Positions 18,091 to 41,773 of a stretch of DNA of 64,000 nucleotides are shown here, one piece after another. Under the pieces are notes generated by a model. It was not told the origin of the DNA. It saw only the letters and a program-made list of their open reading frames with translations, and ran no database searches. Made by a program: the position numbers and the translations under genes. The DNA lies in assembly GCF_004799345.1 (NCBI RefSeq), contig NZ_SSMC01000002.1:558001-622000 (forward strand), given 5' to 3'. Within the stretch, counting starts at the first letter, position 1. Every line of letters begins with the position of its first letter. This DNA comes from Robertkochia marina. Lineage in GTDB: Bacteria; Bacteroidota; Bacteroidia; Flavobacteriales; Flavobacteriaceae.

Positions 18091-18834
18091 TTGGACCAAC
18101 TTATCAAAATTCTCATTGTAGAAGACAATGTGATCATCGCAGATGATATGCAATCGATGCTTGAAGAGATCGGTTATAACATTGTCGCCAACGTTGTGGA
18201 TTATGAAAGTGCTATCGAAGTTCTTGAAAATGAGCATGTAGATCTGGCACTGCTCGATGTGATCCTTGCCACTGAAAAGACGGGAATCGATATCGGGAAA
18301 TACATCCGCGAAAAGAAGAACATCCCATTTATTTTTGTCACCTCCAACTCAGACAAAGCAACTGTTGAAAATGCTAAGTCTGTCAAGCCGAATGGGTACC
18401 TGGTAAAGCCTTTTGAACAGCAGGATCTCTTTACTTCCATTGAGATCGCGCTGTCTAACTTTAACGAGCAGGCGGCGGCAAGCTCCACCAATGATCGGGA
18501 AGTAAGCGGCAGTAACTCAATACTTCGCAACTCTATCTTTGTCAAAAAGAACCAACACTACCATCGCATACCTTTTGATGACATCAAATATGTGAAGGCA
18601 GACAATGTTTATTTGGAGGTGCATACCAAAGACAAGAGTTACCTGGTGCGCTCTGCCATGAAAGACTATATTGAGAAGCTTCCTTCTCAACAGTTCTACC
18701 GGGCGCATAAGTCGTATATTGTAAATCTTGATCATATTGAAGCCATTAATACGAGAGATATCGTCATCAATGGGGAGATCATTCCGATCTCTAAGGATTT
18801 CAGGGAATTCATTCTCGCCAATATGAACTCGTAA
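18091..18834 (+). CDS. LytTR-family response regulator
   Basis: 247 residues: a receiver domain (about 1-122; acidic E11/D12, phospho-acceptor D56, Thr in FVTSN, Lys in YLVKPF), a linker, then a LytTR DNA-binding domain (about 145-245; IFVKKNQHYHRIPFDDIKYVKADNVYLEVHT...FYRAHKSYIVNLDHIEAI). LytTR proteins typically bind direct repeats spaced by about two helical turns near the -35 region. The predicted start is TTG; no in-frame ATG exists upstream of the beta1 strand. Likely partner is the HisKA_2 kinase at 20148. The first of five direct-repeat promoters starts only 29 bp after its stop codon. Confidence 0.94.
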   Translation: MDQLIKILIVEDNVIIADDMQSMLEEIGYNIVANVVDYESAIEVLENEHVDLALLDVILATEKTGIDIGKYIREKKNIPFIFVTSNSDKATVENAKSVKPNGYLVKPFEQQDLFTSIEIALSNFNEQAAASSTNDREVSGSNSILRNSIFVKKNQHYHRIPFDDIKYVKADNVYLEVHTKDKSYLVRSAMKDYIEKLPSQQFYRAHKSYIVNLDHIEAINTRDIVINGEIIPISKDFREFILANMNS

Positions 18835-18862
18835 CTGCAAGACCAATAGAACGTTTGCATTT

Positions 18863-18925
18863 ACAACAAGAAAGGCAAGTCTTACAACATATATTTTAAT
18901 GGGGGATATTCCTGGTCTATATTAG
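18863..18925 (+). promoter_or_regulatory. Direct-repeat promoter of candidate sRNA A1
   Basis: ACAACA half-sites at 18863-18868 and 18884-18889 (21 bp apart) and a TATATTAG -7 box at 18918-18925, starting 34 bp after the start of the second half-site. A weak TTTT lies where the -33 element is expected. Spacing is identical in four other loci of the window. Confidence 0.7.
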
Positions 18926-18931
18926 CAGGGT

Positions 18932-19056
18932 TGTTAGTTTGATACTGATACATCGCCCTAAATGTTATCAGTTTAATATTCCTCGAATCGATCCAATAAC
19001 CAACCTACAAAATTGGATAATGAAAAAAGCTCCGGAGAAATTCGGGGCTTTTTTTA
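18932..19056 (+). ncRNA. Candidate small RNA A1
   Basis: About 125 nt from the predicted start to the T-tract; no credible open frame. It contains a 7-bp hairpin ACTGATA...TATCAGT whose loop carries GCCCTAAAT, a second hairpin ATCCAAT...ATTGGAT with AACCTAC in the loop, and the terminator AGCTCCG...CGGGGCT. The same order (GTTGTTA start, C-rich loop, AACCTAC, AGCTCCGG-type terminator) is seen in A5 and, more loosely, in A4. The 5' end is inferred from the -7 box. Expression is untested. Confidence 0.65.
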
Positions 19057-19057
19057 T
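19026..19057 (+). terminator. Terminator of candidate sRNA A1
   Basis: Stem AAAGCTCCG/CGGGGCTTT with an 8-nt loop and a T-tract; one T-G wobble favours the plus strand. Confidence 0.75.
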
Positions 19058-19059
19058 TA

Positions 19060-19640
19060 GTTAGCAGTTTGCAGTTTACAGTTAACTAATGATTTCGTCT
19101 TCGCGAGTTTACCTGTCAGTAGACGGGACCTATGAAATTGTATTTCTTGTGGAGGATGATGACGGTAAATGCAAAGGTGCAAAGTAGCTAAGAAGCTAAG
19201 AAGCAAAGGGTCCATAATTATCCCAACCGTAAATTATATATGGTTCGTCTTCGCGAAACCTGTAGCGCAGGTTGTGGCGATCTCCCGGTTATACCTCTAT
19301 GCCTATTTTTGATCTTTCATCACCAAAGCCAATTTTGAAAACGTTTTTACCCTCCCCTTTTTTAAGGGGAGGTGGTTTTGTATAGCAAAACCGGAGGGGT
19401 CTAAGGACGACCGAGCGTTAAAAAAAGGTCTGGAAGACCATTTTAGCTATGGGGCCAGGGGGCGGGCTGGGAGTAAGGACGGGGTGGTTAAAAGGTACAA
19501 AACCGGAAGGAGTTGTAAGTGAGCTTAACTTCAATCAACCCGCCCCGTCTCAGGGTTTTATCCTGATCCACCCCGACCTGTCCAGGGTGGGGAGCCTCCT
19601 ATAATTTTTACTTGATTAAAATTCGTTAACGTTAGGGCCC
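19060..19640. repeat. Repeat-filled spacer with a REP-like composite element
   Basis: Holds GCAGTTTGCAGTTTACAG units just after the A1 terminator, a TCTTCGCGA...CAGGTTGTGGCGATCT element (about 19247-19285), and a composite element (19350-19601) with left arm CCTCCCCTTTTTTAAGGGGAGG, a TTTTGTATAGCAAAAC hairpin, a GGTCTGGAAGACC block, and a right part ACCCGCCCCGTCTCAGG...CCACCC. The overall plan matches 8704-8842. No gene is seen. Confidence 0.6.
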
Positions 19641-19663
19641 CCATATCCCCATATCCCAACTTC

Positions 19664-19726
19664 ACAACAACTTCGGCCACCTTCACAACAAACAATTTGT
19701 AATAAGGGTATTCCTACATACTTTAG
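19664..19726 (+). promoter_or_regulatory. Direct-repeat promoter of candidate sRNA A2
   Basis: TTCACAACA occurs twice, with ACAACA at 19664-19669 and 19685-19690 (21 bp), and TACTTTAG at 19719-19726, again 34 bp from the second half-site start. TTTG at 19696-19699 sits 19 bp before the -7 box and is the best -33 match of the five. Confidence 0.7.
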
Positions 19727-19732
19727 AGGTGT

Positions 19733-19830
19733 TGATACGAAAGAGTTGATTAATAGCATAACAACTTGTTTCATAAAAATTTTGCCCTGAAAACGAGTTT
19801 TAAGTCGCCCCTTAGAACTCGTTTTTTTTT
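19733..19830 (+). ncRNA. Candidate small RNA A2
   Basis: About 98 nt ending in a very strong terminator. It begins near GTGTTGATACG and carries GCCCTGAAAA just before the terminator stem, with a further GCCCC in the terminator loop. There is no open frame and no neighbouring gene that this terminator could serve: the nearest upstream coding region ends about 900 bp earlier and its transcript would meet the A1 terminator first. Confidence 0.65.
19791..19830 (+). terminator. Terminator of candidate sRNA A2
   Basis: Fourteen-pair stem AAACGAGTTTTAAG/CTTAGAACTCGTTT with one wobble, 6-nt loop and nine T. Confidence 0.85.
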
Positions 19831-19951
19831 CTTTTGATCATCAACGCAATACGTTTTTTGTCATAGAGAGATGCTTAATTAAATGTTGTTTATTCTTACT
19901 TTTTTTCTTTTATTCTCGTACATTTAATTTTGCTATAAGGAACTGAGATTC

Positions 19952-20014
19952 ACAACAGCTTTCTGTGGTTATACAACAAAAGTTTAGGGGTTGTTGTGAA
20001 TTGAGTTAAGTTTA
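19952..20014 (+). promoter_or_regulatory. Direct-repeat promoter of candidate sRNA A3
   Basis: ACAACA at 19952-19957 and 19973-19978 (21 bp) and TAAGTTTA at 20007-20014. An inverted copy TGTTGTGAAT (19992-20001) pairs perfectly with 19948-19957, so this locus has a third, opposed half-site between the direct repeat and the -7 box. Confidence 0.65.
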
Positions 20015-20020
20015 TCCTGC

Positions 20021-20107
20021 TGTTAAAATGTTATAAAGTATTAAGGTGAGTGCGATCTTGCCTAAACAATGGTAAAAAAAGCCTAAATGCGCATTTAGGC
20101 TTTTTTT
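20021..20107 (+). ncRNA. Candidate small RNA A3
   Basis: About 87 nt from the predicted start to a perfect 20-bp palindromic terminator. It contains GCCTAAAC and, in the terminator, GCCTAAAT, which resemble the GCCC(C/T)AAA motifs of the other four. No open frame longer than a few codons. It ends 41 bp before the kinase start codon. An alternative -7 box TAATTTTG at 19925-19932 could give a longer RNA of about 165 nt. Confidence 0.6.
20074..20107. terminator. Palindromic terminator of candidate sRNA A3
   Basis: AAAAAAGCCTAAATGC/GCATTTAGGCTTTTTT is fully self-complementary and can act on both strands. Confidence 0.85.
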
Positions 20108-20147
20108 AAATTAAAAGCAGCAGGTTTACCCCTAACAAGAAAGTGTA

Positions 20148-22103
20148 TTGAGAAAAAAATTACTTCATACAAAATTTATCGGTTTTCTTCTTTGCCTGCT
20201 TCTGTCCTGGCCACTATTGGCACAGTCTGAGCCCAGAGATGCCTACTCTGCCTTTATGCAGTCTGAAGATGTTGAAGCACGATTCGATGTCTTTTTTGAC
20301 ATGGATCAGAGGTATGTGGGTATTACGGCCTACCGCTGGAAGGAGAAAATTGAGGATATCATAAAACGAATCAATACTGCTGAAGATCCTTATTCCAAGC
20401 CCTATTATGAAACCATGCTTTGCAGGTTGTATTATGACATGGGCGATTTTGAAAAAGGGGCCTACCTCGCCGATAAGCTGCTGGAAGACGGTGCTAATCT
20501 TGATGTAAAGGTAAAGCGTACCCTGCTTAGGGTGGCCGATCGTATTTATGCAGAAATGCTGCTGTATGATAAGCAGTTAAAAGTTCGCAAGGAACAGGAA
20601 AAACTGGCAGAGAAGGTTGAATTGTATTCGGTATATGCCAACCTGGGGCTATATCGTCAGGCCTTGTTTGATTACGAGATCCGTAACCCTTATGATTCTA
20701 TCGCTAAGAAAGGAAATTTCGCACTGGCCAAATACTATAAGGACCGGGCAGACTTTAAAAGACTTGATGGAGGACTGCCGCTTTCTGCTATCAAAGAATA
20801 TGAAAGTGCCCTTTCACTCATCGAAGATTATATCAATATTCAAGGTATCAGTTCGGAAGCCGAGTTCAGGGAGGCTCTTTTTCTCGGAGGACAGATCCAT
20901 GGAGGGATTGGAAAGTGTAAATTGGCACTTGGTGAATACCGTAAAGCCATATCCTACCTGGAAGAAGGCGTGTCTTCAGGAAAGTTCTACGAACAGGGCA
21001 AATTTCCTTATCATACCTCTGAATACTGGACGGATCTCGCTGAATGCTATTTGAAGGATTCCAACTATGAGATCGCCAAGCTATACCTTGATAGTATAGA
21101 AAGTGTTGGCAAATTGGCTCCTTCCAATAAAATGCGGTTCTACCATCTTAAGGCCGATTATTTTTTGGGTACAGAGCGACCGGTAATGGCGGCATCATAT
21201 TTAAACCGCTACTCTAAAGGAAGGGATTCTATAGAAAAGAGCGTTATGGGCAAGCAATTGCTCGGACAGTTCGTGGCTTTTGATATTGACCAGCAAACCA
21301 AGTTGAAGCTCGAAAAACAAAAGCAGGATCTGGAGAGAAATAAGAATGAGATCCTTGAACGCGAAAAGATCATTTACCTGAGTATTGTAGCCTTGCTTTT
21401 TAGTTTGCTTTGTGTGGTAGCCCTGATCGTTGCCTATTTAAAGAGTGTCAAGAACAAAAAACTCATTGAAAATCAGAAACAGATCATTGAGGATTCTCTT
21501 ATTGAGAAAGATTCGCTCCTAAAGGAGATTCACCACAGGGTAAAGAACAACCTGCAAATGGTATCGAGTTTATTAAGCCTGCAATCCAAAAATACTCGTA
21601 GTCGAGCCGCGATCAATGCGCTGGAGGAAGGACAGAGTCGTGTTAAAGCCATGGCCCTGATCCATCAGAAATTGTATCAGAACGACGATCTTTCTGTCAT
21701 CGAGATGCAGGAATATATTGAATCTTTGGTGGCTTCTATACATTCAGTATTTAAAAAGGAGGGATATCAAACCAATATTCACATCGATGCCGAACAAACC
21801 AGGCTTGATGTTGATAGGGCCATTCCTATCGGACTTATTCTGAATGAACTGGTCTCAAACTCCTTTAAATATGCCTTTGCAGAGAATAAGGAAGGAAATA
21901 TTTATATCAGACTTCAGAGCGATGGTGAAGAATATTCCTTTGAGTACAAGGACGACGGGAAAGGACTTCCGGACGATTTTGAGCAGACCTCTGTAGGTTC
22001 AATGGGGTTACGATTGATCAGACGTCTGGCCAATCAGCTGAGATCCAATCTTCAGATAGATACCCAGGCTGCAGGAGCACGCTTCTGGTTTAATTTCGGG
22101 TAA
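20148..22103 (+). CDS. TPR-containing HisKA_2 sensor histidine kinase
   Basis: 651 residues. Signal peptide (about 1-27, ending LLAQ), a helical TPR-like sensor region (about 30-390), one transmembrane helix (IIYLSIVALLFSLLCVVALIVAYL, about 405-428), a short coiled coil, then HisKA_2 with EIHHRVKNNLQMVSSLLSLQS (phospho-acceptor among H462/H463) and a HATPase_c domain (NELVSNSFKYAF, DDGKGLP, GSMGLRLIRRLANQL). The start is TTG, like the LytTR gene. Such kinases commonly partner LytTR regulators in flavobacteria; the two genes here are separated only by three candidate sRNA genes and repeats. The signal sensed is unknown. Confidence 0.93.
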   Translation: MRKKLLHTKFIGFLLCLLLSWPLLAQSEPRDAYSAFMQSEDVEARFDVFFDMDQRYVGITAYRWKEKIEDIIKRINTAEDPYSKPYYETMLCRLYYDMGDFEKGAYLADKLLEDGANLDVKVKRTLLRVADRIYAEMLLYDKQLKVRKEQEKLAEKVELYSVYANLGLYRQALFDYEIRNPYDSIAKKGNFALAKYYKDRADFKRLDGGLPLSAIKEYESALSLIEDYINIQGISSEAEFREALFLGGQIHGGIGKCKLALGEYRKAISYLEEGVSSGKFYEQGKFPYHTSEYWTDLAECYLKDSNYEIAKLYLDSIESVGKLAPSNKMRFYHLKADYFLGTERPVMAASYLNRYSKGRDSIEKSVMGKQLLGQFVAFDIDQQTKLKLEKQKQDLERNKNEILEREKIIYLSIVALLFSLLCVVALIVAYLKSVKNKKLIENQKQIIEDSLIEKDSLLKEIHHRVKNNLQMVSSLLSLQSKNTRSRAAINALEEGQSRVKAMALIHQKLYQNDDLSVIEMQEYIESLVASIHSVFKKEGYQTNIHIDAEQTRLDVDRAIPIGLILNELVSNSFKYAFAENKEGNIYIRLQSDGEEYSFEYKDDGKGLPDDFEQTSVGSMGLRLIRRLANQLRSNLQIDTQAAGARFWFNFG

Positions 22104-37366: not shown

Positions 37367-37379
37367 ATTAGGGATGTGG

Positions 37380-37507
37380 GTAAGTAGGTAAGTAGGTAAG
37401 TAGGTAAGTAGGTAAGTAGGTAAGTAGGTAAGTAGGTAAGTAGGTAAGCAGGTAAGCAGGTAAGCAGGTATGCAGGTATGCAGGTATGCAGGTAGACGGG
37501 TAGGTGG
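37380..37507. repeat. 8-bp tandem array with stepwise unit change
   Basis: Sixteen contiguous octamers: eight GTAAGTAG (37380-37443), three GTAAGCAG, three GTATGCAG, then GTAGACGG and GTAGGTGG. It starts 14 bp after the terminator T-tract. Each step differs from the one before by one or a few bases, as expected from slippage plus mutation. The Leu-Pro-Thr-Tyr frames on the minus strand are translations of it. Confidence 0.95.
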
Positions 37508-37595: not shown

Positions 37596-37629
37596 AAAAA
37601 AAAGAGCTCCGGGGGGCACCGAAACTCTT
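37596..37629 (-). terminator. Terminator of candidate sRNA A4
   Basis: On minus, AAGAGTTTCGG/CCGGAGCTCTT with wobble pairs and eight T. On plus the wobbles become A-C mismatches, which fixes the direction. Confidence 0.8.
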
Positions 37630-37726
37630 GTTTTTTTTACCTAAGTAGTAGGTTAAATCTTGGGCTTTGATTTGTTGTTCTTGCAGACATCAATTTGGGG
37701 CTCTGACATCAACAAGTAATTTAACA
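37596..37726 (-). ncRNA. Candidate small RNA A4
   Basis: About 131 nt on the minus strand between the predicted start and the terminator. It opens with GTGTTGTTAAATTA, contains GAGCCCCAAAT and AAGCCCAAG, then AACCTAC within an ACCT...AGGT hairpin. It lies downstream of the gluconate permease gene, same strand, but has its own promoter signals. Similarity to A1 and A5 covers the promoter, the start, the C-rich motifs and the terminator. Confidence 0.65.
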
Positions 37727-37732
37727 ACACTT

Positions 37733-37795
37733 CTAATATACTACTGATAACCAGGAGTTAGAAATTTATGTTGTGAGGGTAGGGGTAGTTGTTGT
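37733..37795 (-). promoter_or_regulatory. Direct-repeat promoter of candidate sRNA A4
   Basis: On minus, ACAACA at 37795-37790 and 37774-37769 (21 bp) and TATATTAG at 37740-37733, 34 bp from the second half-site start. TTTC is at the -33 position. Confidence 0.7.
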
Positions 37796-37879
37796 GTAGG
37801 GTTGATTTATAGGGGGGCTGAGCGTTAAAAGGGCCGAAGTATAACCGCATAACCGTATAACCGCATAACTGATTAAGGT

Positions 37880-41199: not shown

Positions 41200-41464
41200 G
41201 GGGATGTGGGTGAACAGGTAGACCGGTAGACGAAGGGCCGAGCGTAAAAAAGGTCTTGCAGACCTATTTAGCGATCCTGCCTGTCGGCAGACAGGGGAGC
41301 CAGCTGACGGGAGGGCAATGCGGGTAGTCAGGTAAGCGGGTAAGTAGGTAGGCAGAAAACCTAAATTTTCAACTCCTAAAATTCCAGAATTTAATTTCGC
41401 ATAACCGCATAACCGCATAACCGCATAACCGCATAACCGCATAACCGCATAACCGCATAACCGC
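41200..41464. repeat. Repeats upstream of the gluconate operon
   Basis: An interspersed block (about 41225-41340) with AAGGTCTTGCAGACCT and GGCAGACAGGGGAGCCAGC, then GGTAAGCGGGTAAGTAGG units, and eight to nine octamers CATAACCG (about 41398-41463). The octamer array lies just past the A5 terminator in the minus direction. Confidence 0.8.
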
Positions 41465-41484
41465 TAACTGAATGCTGTACAAAT

Positions 41485-41517
41485 CAAAAAAGCTCCGGAT
41501 CTGTTCCGGAGCTTTTT
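41485..41517. terminator. Terminator of candidate sRNA A5
   Basis: Perfect 9-bp stem AGCTCCGGA/TCCGGAGCT with 5-nt loop and A/T tracts on both sides. Confidence 0.85.
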
Positions 41518-41613
41518 TTGTAATCCAACGGGTAGGTTGGTTCGTAGGTTTCATTTAGGGTATGATGTACTGATTACTTTTTTTGGGGCTTGGTGATCAG
41601 TACTGAACTAACA
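41485..41613 (-). ncRNA. Candidate small RNA A5
   Basis: About 129 nt on the minus strand. It opens with GTGTTGTTAG, has an 8-bp hairpin GTACTGAT...ATCAGTAC with GCCCCAAAA in the loop, then ACCCTAAAT, two CCTAC motifs (AACCTACG and CAACCTACC, the latter inside a CCAAC...GTTGG hairpin), and the AGCTCCGGA terminator. Closest relative is A1. It lies between pirin and the gluconate operon and ends 358 bp before the gluconokinase start. Confidence 0.68.
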
Positions 41614-41619
41614 ACACTG

Positions 41620-41682
41620 CTAATATAGAACAGGATTACTCCTGATAGAAATTTATGTTGTAAGAATTAACTGAAGCGTTGT
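41620..41682 (-). promoter_or_regulatory. Direct-repeat promoter of candidate sRNA A5
   Basis: On minus, ACAACG at 41682-41677 and ACAACA at 41661-41656 (21 bp) and TATATTAG at 41627-41620. Geometry is the same as in A1-A4; only one base of one half-site differs. Confidence 0.7.
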
Positions 41683-41773
41683 GAACTATGGTCTTTTGGT
41701 TATTTGATGACTTTAGGAGCTTAAATTTCAACCATTTAAACCGCATAACTGTAAACCGCAAACTGTTAACTGC

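What the first reader, a model, noticed from the sequence alone, without database searches (positions are those of the whole stretch)
18932..20107. Three tandem candidate sRNA genes between a LytTR regulator and its likely kinase
The 1.3-kb gap between the regulator and kinase genes has no coding capacity but holds three promoter/terminator units. Terminators at 19791-19830 and 20074-20107 have no gene they could serve. This suggests the two-component system directly controls a set of neighbouring small RNAs, comparable in logic to Qrr or CsrB families but in Bacteroidota and through a LytTR regulator.
Basis: partly seen in the sequence, partly recalled or inferred. Interest (0 to 1): 0.9.

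Follow-up and report, generated by a model that had tools for sequence, protein, structure and literature searches.

The report
LytTR-controlled small RNA gene family
Between the two genes of a bacterial sensor-regulator pair lie short RNA genes, each behind what looks like the regulator's own landing site; related marine bacteria keep the same layout, which suggests an unrecognised RNA-based control circuit in a phylum where few are known.

Summary
The window is from a Robertkochia species or close kin (Flavobacteriaceae). Each of the three units in the regulator-kinase gap has a direct repeat ACAACA-N15-ACAACA (21-bp period, as at LytTR sites) exactly 34 nt before a TAnnTTTG-like -7 element, then a terminator. 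The repeat lies in the gap in 66 of 73 related loci with a kinase. The 34-nt offset holds in 123 of 151 boxes. The box occurs in 11 of 11 genomes with the regulator, 9 of 49 without.

Units 1 and 2 are conserved noncoding RNAs. Unit 1 has three more copies in this genome, two in the window (37.6, 41.5 kb). Unit 3 is better read as the kinase's own promoter and leader with a conserved terminator; it may also yield an sRNA.

The box also precedes a 33-46 aa protein gene in 10 of 10 regulator genomes and 0 of 15 others. Its leader shares CCCAAAT-like motifs with many of the sRNAs (not with unit 2), so I suggest leader-mimicking decoys, unproven. No Hfq or CsrA match in this genome. No Rfam match. 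No transcript data.

The parts
18091..18834 (+). LytTR response regulator gene (receiver + LytTR DNA-binding domain)
   Evidence: Pfam Response_reg 1.4e-21, LytTR 4.8e-21; relatives at 68-89% identity in the 80 loci returned
18860..18889 (+). Box 1: LytTR-type direct repeat TTTACAACA-N12-CTTACAACA
18918..18925 (+). -7 element TATATTAG of unit 1, 34 nt from second half-site
18930..19056 (+). Unit 1: sRNA of family B (hairpin, GCCCTAAA, ACCTAC segment, terminator 19023-19056)
   Evidence: own-genome CM E=5.6e-19 (a training member)
19661..19690 (+). Box 2: TTCACAACA-N12-TTCACAACA
   Evidence: only match without mismatch in the genome
19719..19726 (+). -7 element TACTTTAG of unit 2
19731..19832 (+). 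Unit 2: sRNA of family C, terminator 19789-19830 with C-rich loop
   Evidence: aligned with 6 Robertkochia/Galbibacter units, two of them cut short
19949..19978 (+). Box 3: TTCACAACA-N12-TATACAACA, at the kinase promoter
   Evidence: kinase-proximal boxes in other genera
20007..20014 (+). -7 element TAAGTTTA of the kinase promoter
20019..20108 (+). Unit 3: kinase leader RNA with terminator 20073-20107 (attenuator and/or sRNA)
   Evidence: AAAGCCTAAA and TTTAGGCTTTTT invariant in 6 of 6 aligned loci; R. sediminum, not in that alignment, lacks this form
20148..22103 (+). Sensor histidine kinase gene (HisKA_2 + HATPase_c)
37769..37798 (-). Box of dispersed family B copy
37596..37728 (-). Dispersed family B sRNA copy
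   Evidence: E=2.9e-15 (in training set); box in register
41656..41685 (-). Box of second dispersed family B copy (first half-site ACAACG)
41484..41615 (-). Second dispersed family B sRNA copy
   Evidence: E=3.9e-16 (in training set); box in register

Best explanation
The LytTR regulator (presumably phosphorylated by the kinase) binds pairs of ACAACA half-sites 21 bp apart, centred near -54, and activates promoters with a TAnnTTTG-type -7 element. Its main outputs are short noncoding RNAs ended by intrinsic terminators: units 1 and 2 in the gap plus dispersed paralogues. It also drives the kinase gene (feedback, damped by the terminator in the leader) and a gene for a 33-46 aa protein. Supported by comparative sequence evidence: the units, boxes, fixed promoter geometry, conservation, and co-occurrence with the regulator. 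Inferred: start sites, that the regulator itself binds the boxes, that it activates, and that the RNAs act in trans. Possible action (weakly supported): many of the sRNAs repeat C-rich motifs (CCCAAAT, ACCTAC) also found in the leader of the small-protein mRNA, so they may compete with that leader for a common, unidentified RNA-binding partner.
For: Exact ACAAC-N16-ACAAC on the sense strand of the gap in 66 of 73 loci with a kinase, against 6 in 1.73 Mb of other strand-bases. PWM: 186 hits in 63.5 kb of gap, 15 in 2.07 Mb outside, 91 loci (L088 duplicates L011). -7 element exactly 34 nt from the second half-site in 123 of 151 boxes; 132 of 151 in a 30-42 window, 50 shuffles average 12, maximum 21 (122 and 131 of 150 without the duplicate). 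Terminators after 63 of 87 non-last boxes; five shuffles gave 0, 2, 1, 7, 3. Box pattern in 11 of 11 genomes with the regulator, 9 of 49 without; the backwards pattern in 2 of 11 and 7 of 49 (Fisher 5e-7). Transcript-only model found 6 family B copies not used to build it; the best box is in register in 5 of 6, scoring 18 or more in four. Where regulator and kinase are about 21 kb apart (G050), a box (37.2) stands at the kinase and none in the 1.5 kb after the regulator. Small-protein gene has a box (15.1 to 36.5) in 10 of 10 regulator genomes and 0 of 15 others; three of the ten (20.4, 20.9, 15.1) were found without using the box. Family B pairs: two-sided changes at 9 of 23, shuffle mean 4.8 (6 of the 9 in the terminator). 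No frame stays open across copies.
Against: No RNA or binding data. The genomes are related, so p-values overstate. Nineteen of 151 boxes lack the -7 element at the expected place; 24 of 87 non-last units lack a detected terminator and 22 of 87 last boxes have one; 4 of 91 loci (three Arenibacter, G050) have no box after the regulator at the threshold used. The PWM was trained on gap boxes. Exact boxes in the own genome equal their backwards control (6 and 6). Of the 11 training copies of family B the best-scoring box is in register in 7 and one 21-bp period upstream in 4, with scores down to 4.2. Against the decoy part: unit 2 carries none of the counted motifs and unit 3 only CCTAAA; the core of RNA 'A' shows none; only 4 of 10 regulator-genome leaders hold CCCWAAAT, and CTT[AG]A[CA] is in none of them; G057 has the regulator but no small-protein match.
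Confidence: 0.8

Rival explanations
1. The units are not free sRNAs but mRNA ends: unit 1 is the 3' end of the regulator mRNA, unit 3 an attenuated kinase leader, unit 2 a leftover terminator.
For: In the window I see no terminator between the regulator stop and box 1, and no other -7 element between unit 3's terminator and the kinase start (by eye).
Against: In L017, L022, L073 and L079 the regulator has its own terminator before the first box (by eye). Family B copies stand elsewhere with box and terminator. No gene starts or ends beside unit 2.
Confidence: 0.12
2. The boxes are bound by a different regulator (another LytTR paralogue), and the adjacency is incidental.
For: LytTR paralogues at 33-38% identity exist in sister genomes; no binding data.
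Against: Box presence follows this orthologue, 11 of 11 against 9 of 49; boxes sit beside it in 87 of 91 loci; the small-protein promoter has no box where the orthologue is absent, 0 of 15.
Confidence: 0.1
3. The sRNAs act by base-pairing with trans mRNAs through C-rich loops, as Qrr or RNAIII do, not as decoys (concerns the downstream step only).
For: C-rich conserved segments; multicopy base-pairing sRNAs are known in the phylum (FopS, PMC11697453 passages).
Against: The shared motif, not its complement, occurs in the co-regulated leaders. No target search was run.
Confidence: 0.4
4. The units encode tiny peptides.
For: Among Robertkochia/Galbibacter copies open frames reach 29 aa, and some dispersed copies of other genera have frames of 58-92 aa.
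Against: Longest ATG frame is 4, 0 and 5 aa in units 1-3; in no frame are more than 3 of 14 copies open for 30 codons after the anchor, in either set (14 of 17 and 14 of 16 had the anchor).
Confidence: 0.02
5. Dispersed repeat elements (REP/MITE-like) carrying hairpins.
For: The middle of the gap (19057-19660) holds short repeats shared with other places in the window.
Against: Units keep promoter geometry, loops and slot position across genera.
Confidence: 0.03

Closest known systems
agr system of Staphylococcus aureus (AgrA, RNAIII)
   Same: LytTR regulator binds direct repeats (centre near -60) and activates a regulatory RNA gene beside the two-component genes (PMC4227749, passages).
   Different: One RNA that also encodes delta-hemolysin; here several short noncoding paralogues, a HisKA_2 kinase, and the RNA genes lie between regulator and kinase.
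VirSR of Clostridium perfringens with VR-RNA, VirT, VirU
   Same: Regulator with paired direct repeats driving three regulatory RNAs plus protein genes (PMC2838878, passages; that VirR is LytTR-type is recalled).
   Different: Other phylum; repeat spacing and RNAs differ; not tandem between regulator and kinase (recalled).
Qrr sRNAs of Vibrio
   Same: Response regulator drives several paralogous sRNAs (recalled).
   Different: Qrr uses an NtrC-type regulator, sigma-54 and Hfq (recalled); here LytTR, TAnnTTTG-type promoters, no Hfq match in this genome.
CsrB/RsmY/RsmZ
   Same: Two-component-driven RNAs with repeated short motifs (recalled).
   Different: No CsrA match in this genome; the repeated motifs seen are C-rich, not GGA (GGA recalled).
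FopS sRNA family of Bacteroides thetaiotaomicron
   Same: Multicopy paralogous sRNAs in Bacteroidota (PMC11697453, passages).
   Different: FopS associates with RbpB (an RRM protein, recalled); no RRM match in 60 Flavobacteriaceae genomes; FopS is said to be driven by sigma-A-type promoters, possibly with an unknown regulator.

Membership tests
LytTR two-component system | REC + LytTR regulator with a nearby histidine kinase | tested here: met
   a kinase relative follows in 73 of 80 fetched loci, at least two of the other seven being cut by contig ends
LytTR two-component system | Paired direct repeats about two helical turns apart upstream of target promoters | tested here: met
   21-bp period, fixed 34-nt offset
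LytTR two-component system | Regulator binds the repeats | not testable with these tools
   only co-occurrence
Qrr sRNAs | Hfq in the host | tested here: not met
   PF17209: no match in own genome; control rings in 5 of 14 genomes
Qrr sRNAs | sigma-54 promoter under an NtrC-type regulator | tested here: not met
   TAnnTTTG-type -7 element at a fixed place; regulator is LytTR; no direct scan for sigma-54 sites was made
CsrB/RsmZ | CsrA in the host | tested here: not met
   PF02599: no match in own genome; control rings in 3 of 14
CsrB/RsmZ | Repeated motif in RNA shared with target leaders | tested here: inconclusive
   CCCWAAAT shared with part of the leaders, others not, relatedness inflates counts
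agr/RNAIII | AgrB/AgrD peptide signal genes beside the kinase | not tested
   no dedicated search
FopS | RRM protein partner in the host | tested here: not met
   PF00076 at 1e-5: 0 of 60 family genomes, own included; control rings in Bacteroides ihuae
Any Rfam 15 family | Match at gathering score | tested here: not met
   window and 12 loci, no match

The most novel reading that the evidence does not exclude
A LytTR system whose chief output is a multi-copy family of sRNAs that mimic the leader of a conserved 33-46 aa protein's mRNA and titrate an unknown RNA-binding factor: a Csr-like titration circuit built from different parts, in a genome with no Hfq or CsrA match and a family sample with no RRM match.
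Probability: 0.25. Interest if true: 0.92.

Novelty: new variant of a known kind. Interest (0 to 1): 0.78.

Why it matters
Few sRNAs of Flavobacteriaceae have a known regulator (my knowledge; the papers searched gave none under a LytTR regulator). Here one regulator, one DNA box and several RNA families absent from Rfam can be read off genomes of about 17 genera by record title, so both the upstream signal and the downstream RNA mechanism become testable at once. If the leader-mimic idea holds, it points to an undiscovered RNA-binding partner in bacteria in which the classic ones were not found.

Tried and rejected
Generic sigma-70 promoter scan: at chance level. Rfam: nothing. Core of the other genera's RNA 'A' (TTTTCATATAGTGTTCTC) sought in the own genome with up to 3 mismatches: 5 hits, 5 in the control, none exact, so I take it as absent. 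Boxes at G000:C1:1453195 before a lipoprotein-like gene (score 22.4) and C1:17534 before a small ORF (21.0): left open. Idea that unit 1's loop pairs with unit 3's terminator arm: shared CCTAAATG holds in the window and one other Robertkochia but not in the Galbibacter loci I compared by eye; dropped. NCBIfam and Pfam on the small proteins: nothing. Literature: searches listed no paper that I could see to deal with LytTR-driven sRNAs in Flavobacteriaceae; only open-licence PMC is held. Papers were seen as passages (PMC9723704, PMC11697453, PMC5395568, PMC7366714, PMC4227749, PMC2838878); all others as search listings only. First alignment A1 had window coordinates off by a few bases and was replaced by A2, which leaves out the Galbibacter rows; one weak R. 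sediminum unit was in neither.

Full report
Observation. The gap 18835-20147 lies between a REC-LytTR regulator and a HisKA_2 kinase. No ORF of 60 aa or more lies within it; one antisense ORF of the regulator reaches 12 nt in. Three direct repeats ACAACA-N15-ACAACA begin at 18863, 19664 and 19952 (full half-sites 18860-18889, 19661-19690, 19949-19978). Each is 34 nt ahead of a TAnnTTTG-like element (TATATTAG, TACTTTAG, TAAGTTTA) and is followed by a terminator-like hairpin; the scan lists the second on plus, the third on minus only (it is symmetric), and not the first, which rests on reading and folding. TAnnTTTG is the sigma-A -7 consensus at -12 to -5 in Flavobacterium psychrophilum (PMC9723704, passages). 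Predicted RNAs: about 18930-19056, 19731-19832 and 20019-20108. Exact repeats are no more frequent in the own genome than their backwards control (6 and 6); a looser form gives 17 against 5. What counts is where they lie.

More than chance. The search for related loci kept the best 80 of 275 loci; titles name Robertkochia, Galbibacter, Flagellimonas, Allomuricauda, Maribacter, Zobellia, Robiginitalea, Eudoraea, Cellulophaga, Croceivirga, Arenibacter and others, and some are MAGs. A kinase relative follows in 73 of 80; of the other seven at least two (L009, L028) end near the regulator. In 66 of these 73 the exact sense-strand repeat ACAAC-N16-ACAAC lies in the gap, in none on the antisense strand; elsewhere it occurs 6 times in 1.73 Mb of strand-bases, four of them in one microsatellite. 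A weight matrix from 100 gap boxes finds 186 hits in 63.5 kb of gap and 15 in 2.07 Mb outside, over 91 loci including the window (one duplicated, L088 = L011); 87 of 91 have a box. The matrix was trained on the gap, so one search is the cleaner test. After merging, 178 units remain, 151 with a box of 18 or more. The offset from second half-site to the -7 element is 34 nt in 123 of these 151; 132 of 151 carry it within 30-42 nt, against a mean of 12 and maximum of 21 in 50 shuffles (122 and 131 of 150 without the duplicate). Terminators follow 63 of 87 non-last boxes and 22 of 87 last boxes; five shuffles of the non-last set gave 0, 2, 1, 7 and 3.

Link to this regulator. Of 60 family genomes, 11 (own included) carry the orthologue at E below 1e-100. 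All 11 have the pattern TTNACAACA-N15-ACAACAA; 9 of the other 49 do. The backwards pattern occurs in 2 of the 11 and 7 of the 49, so 9 of 49 is near background (Fisher 5e-7, uncorrected for kinship). In G050 the regulator and kinase lie about 21 kb apart; a strong box (37.2) stands at the kinase and none in the 1.5 kb after the regulator. In an order-wide sample 5 of 196 genomes (three already known, own included) had the orthologue at 1e-75, all five in the same family (at most 14 candidates per genome were scored).

What the units are. Unit 1 belongs to a family (B) with a hairpin, a GCCC(C/T)AAA segment, mostly an ACCTAC-like segment and a variable terminator. A covariance model of the transcript alone (R1, 11 sequences) hits the own genome four times strongly (E 5.6e-19 to 3.3e-12, all training members): the gap, window 41.5 kb, window 37.6 kb and C1:703785; the next hit is 0.014. 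Copies at 1e-5 in five Robertkochia genomes are 4, 1, 5, 6 and 1. Six of these 17 were not in the training set; for 5 of the 6 the best box is in register, scoring 28.9, 23.3, 19.6, 18.1 and 4.6, and one (L245, 15.6) is out of register. Of the 11 training copies 7 are in register and 4 have their best box one 21-bp period upstream, with scores from 24.4 down to 4.2; the background 95th percentile is 3.8. Over 57 sources the model also finds slot 1 of Galbibacter pacificus at 6.7e-10. On alignment A2, 9 of 23 pairs show two-sided changes (shuffle mean 4.8; 3 in the hairpin, 6 in the terminator) and 91.7% of cells pair. Unit 2 (family C) aligns with six Robertkochia/Galbibacter units, two cut short. 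Unit 3 aligns in six loci, window included, with AAAGCCTAAA and TTTAGGCTTTTT unchanged in all six; R. sediminum, not in that alignment, lacks the form. Since box 3 is the kinase promoter box, I read unit 3 as a leader with an attenuating terminator that may also give an sRNA.

Other genera. In 48 of 87 loci with boxes a different RNA (A) occupies the gap, with the exact core TTTTCATATAGTGTTCTC; I take it as absent from the own genome (5 inexact hits, 5 in control). Thirty-one stretches around dispersed boxes of regulator-bearing genomes were fetched. Twenty-six of the 31 show 33 boxes at score 22 or more; by my reading 17 precede sRNA-like units, 15 precede ORFs and one is unclear. Thirteen of the 17 end in a T-run after 151-187 nt; for four no near T-run was found. 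Some of the 17 contain open frames of 58-92 aa from any start, but in no frame are more than 3 of the 14 copies with the anchor open for 30 codons.

Small protein. Box-driven ORFs include a 33-35 aa protein ending in TKKLFML-like residues; a 46-aa relative lies behind a box of score 21.0 in the own genome (C1:839792). A profile of seven finds it in 10 of the 11 regulator genomes (not G057) and weaker relatives (E 2.6e-5 to 0.044) in 18 others. A box (15.1 to 36.5) stands upstream in 10 of 10. Of the 18 others 15 gave a readable ORF and 0 of 15 has a box (all scores negative); 3 were dropped as unreadable. Three of the ten (L210, L211, L214; scores 20.4, 20.9, 15.1) had not been found through a box.

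Shared RNA motifs. In 24 sRNA sequences outside the own genome CCCWAAAT occurs 28 times (shuffles 1.8), ACCTAC 23 (1.9) and CTT[AG]ACC 21 (1.1); in nine own sequences (eight units and one leader) 4 (0.5), 6 (0.2) and 1 (0.2). Unit 2 has none and unit 3 only CCTAAA. Small-protein leaders have CCCWAAAT 6 times in 4 of 10 (0.5) with the regulator and 17 times in 13 of 15 (1.6) without; ACCTA is 8 (2.4) and 7 (2.7, maximum 6); the looser CTT[AG]A[CA] is 0 (2.6) and 8 (3.7). Kinship inflates all of these. Where they share anything, the sRNAs resemble the leader, not its complement, which favours a shared binding partner over pairing with that leader. No Hfq or CsrA match in the own genome and no RRM match in 60 family genomes, so any partner is unknown.

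Known relatives. A LytTR regulator driving regulatory RNA is known from agr (PMC4227749, passages), and VirR drives three regulatory RNAs (PMC2838878, passages). Multicopy sRNAs in the phylum are known as FopS (PMC11697453, passages). The eight searches listed no paper on this locus that I could see, and no Rfam family matches. Hence: a new variant of a known kind, with RNA families not in Rfam.

Noticed in passing
L216-L232 upstream regions: In genomes without this regulator the small-protein gene has another conserved promoter element, about ATGTTAAA-N..-GCATTTCATCGATTT-N..-TTTAA, in most of 15 sequences, before a CATATTAGCA-like -7 element: apparently a different regulator for the same leader.
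   Followed up: partly
L176, L177, L178: A 123-124 aa protein gene (MENS...) behind a box in three genera, followed by a 233-234 aa protein with a signal-peptide-like start; two of the three leaders hold a GCATTTC[AG]TCGATT-like element.
   Followed up: partly
G000:C2:719989 and 721063 (L199, L191): Two further boxes (19.2 and 30.9) 1 kb apart in the own genome with sRNA-like sequence downstream (CCCTAAA, CCTAC, CTTAACC motifs), not among the strong hits of model R1.
   Followed up: partly
37379-37494 and 41398-41468: Eight-base tandem repeats (GGTAAGTA, CGCATAAC) about 100 and 16 nt beyond the terminators of the two dispersed sRNA copies.
   Followed up: no
19057-19660: The stretch between units 1 and 2 holds short repeats shared with places near 1.5, 2.3, 34.4, 41.2, 41.8 and 63.8 kb of the window.
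   Followed up: partly
L007-L086 gaps: RNA 'A': exact 18-nt core TTTTCATATAGTGTTCTC (selected on) in 48 of 87 loci with boxes, with flanking TTTTTCA and AAAG conserved at 90% or more; not found in the own genome.
   Followed up: partly
L008 6744-9568: Robertkochia sediminum has a 2.8 kb gap with five family B units in tandem (one weak, 3.4e-5), three of them with the best box one 21-bp period upstream, as if three half-sites were in a row.
   Followed up: partly
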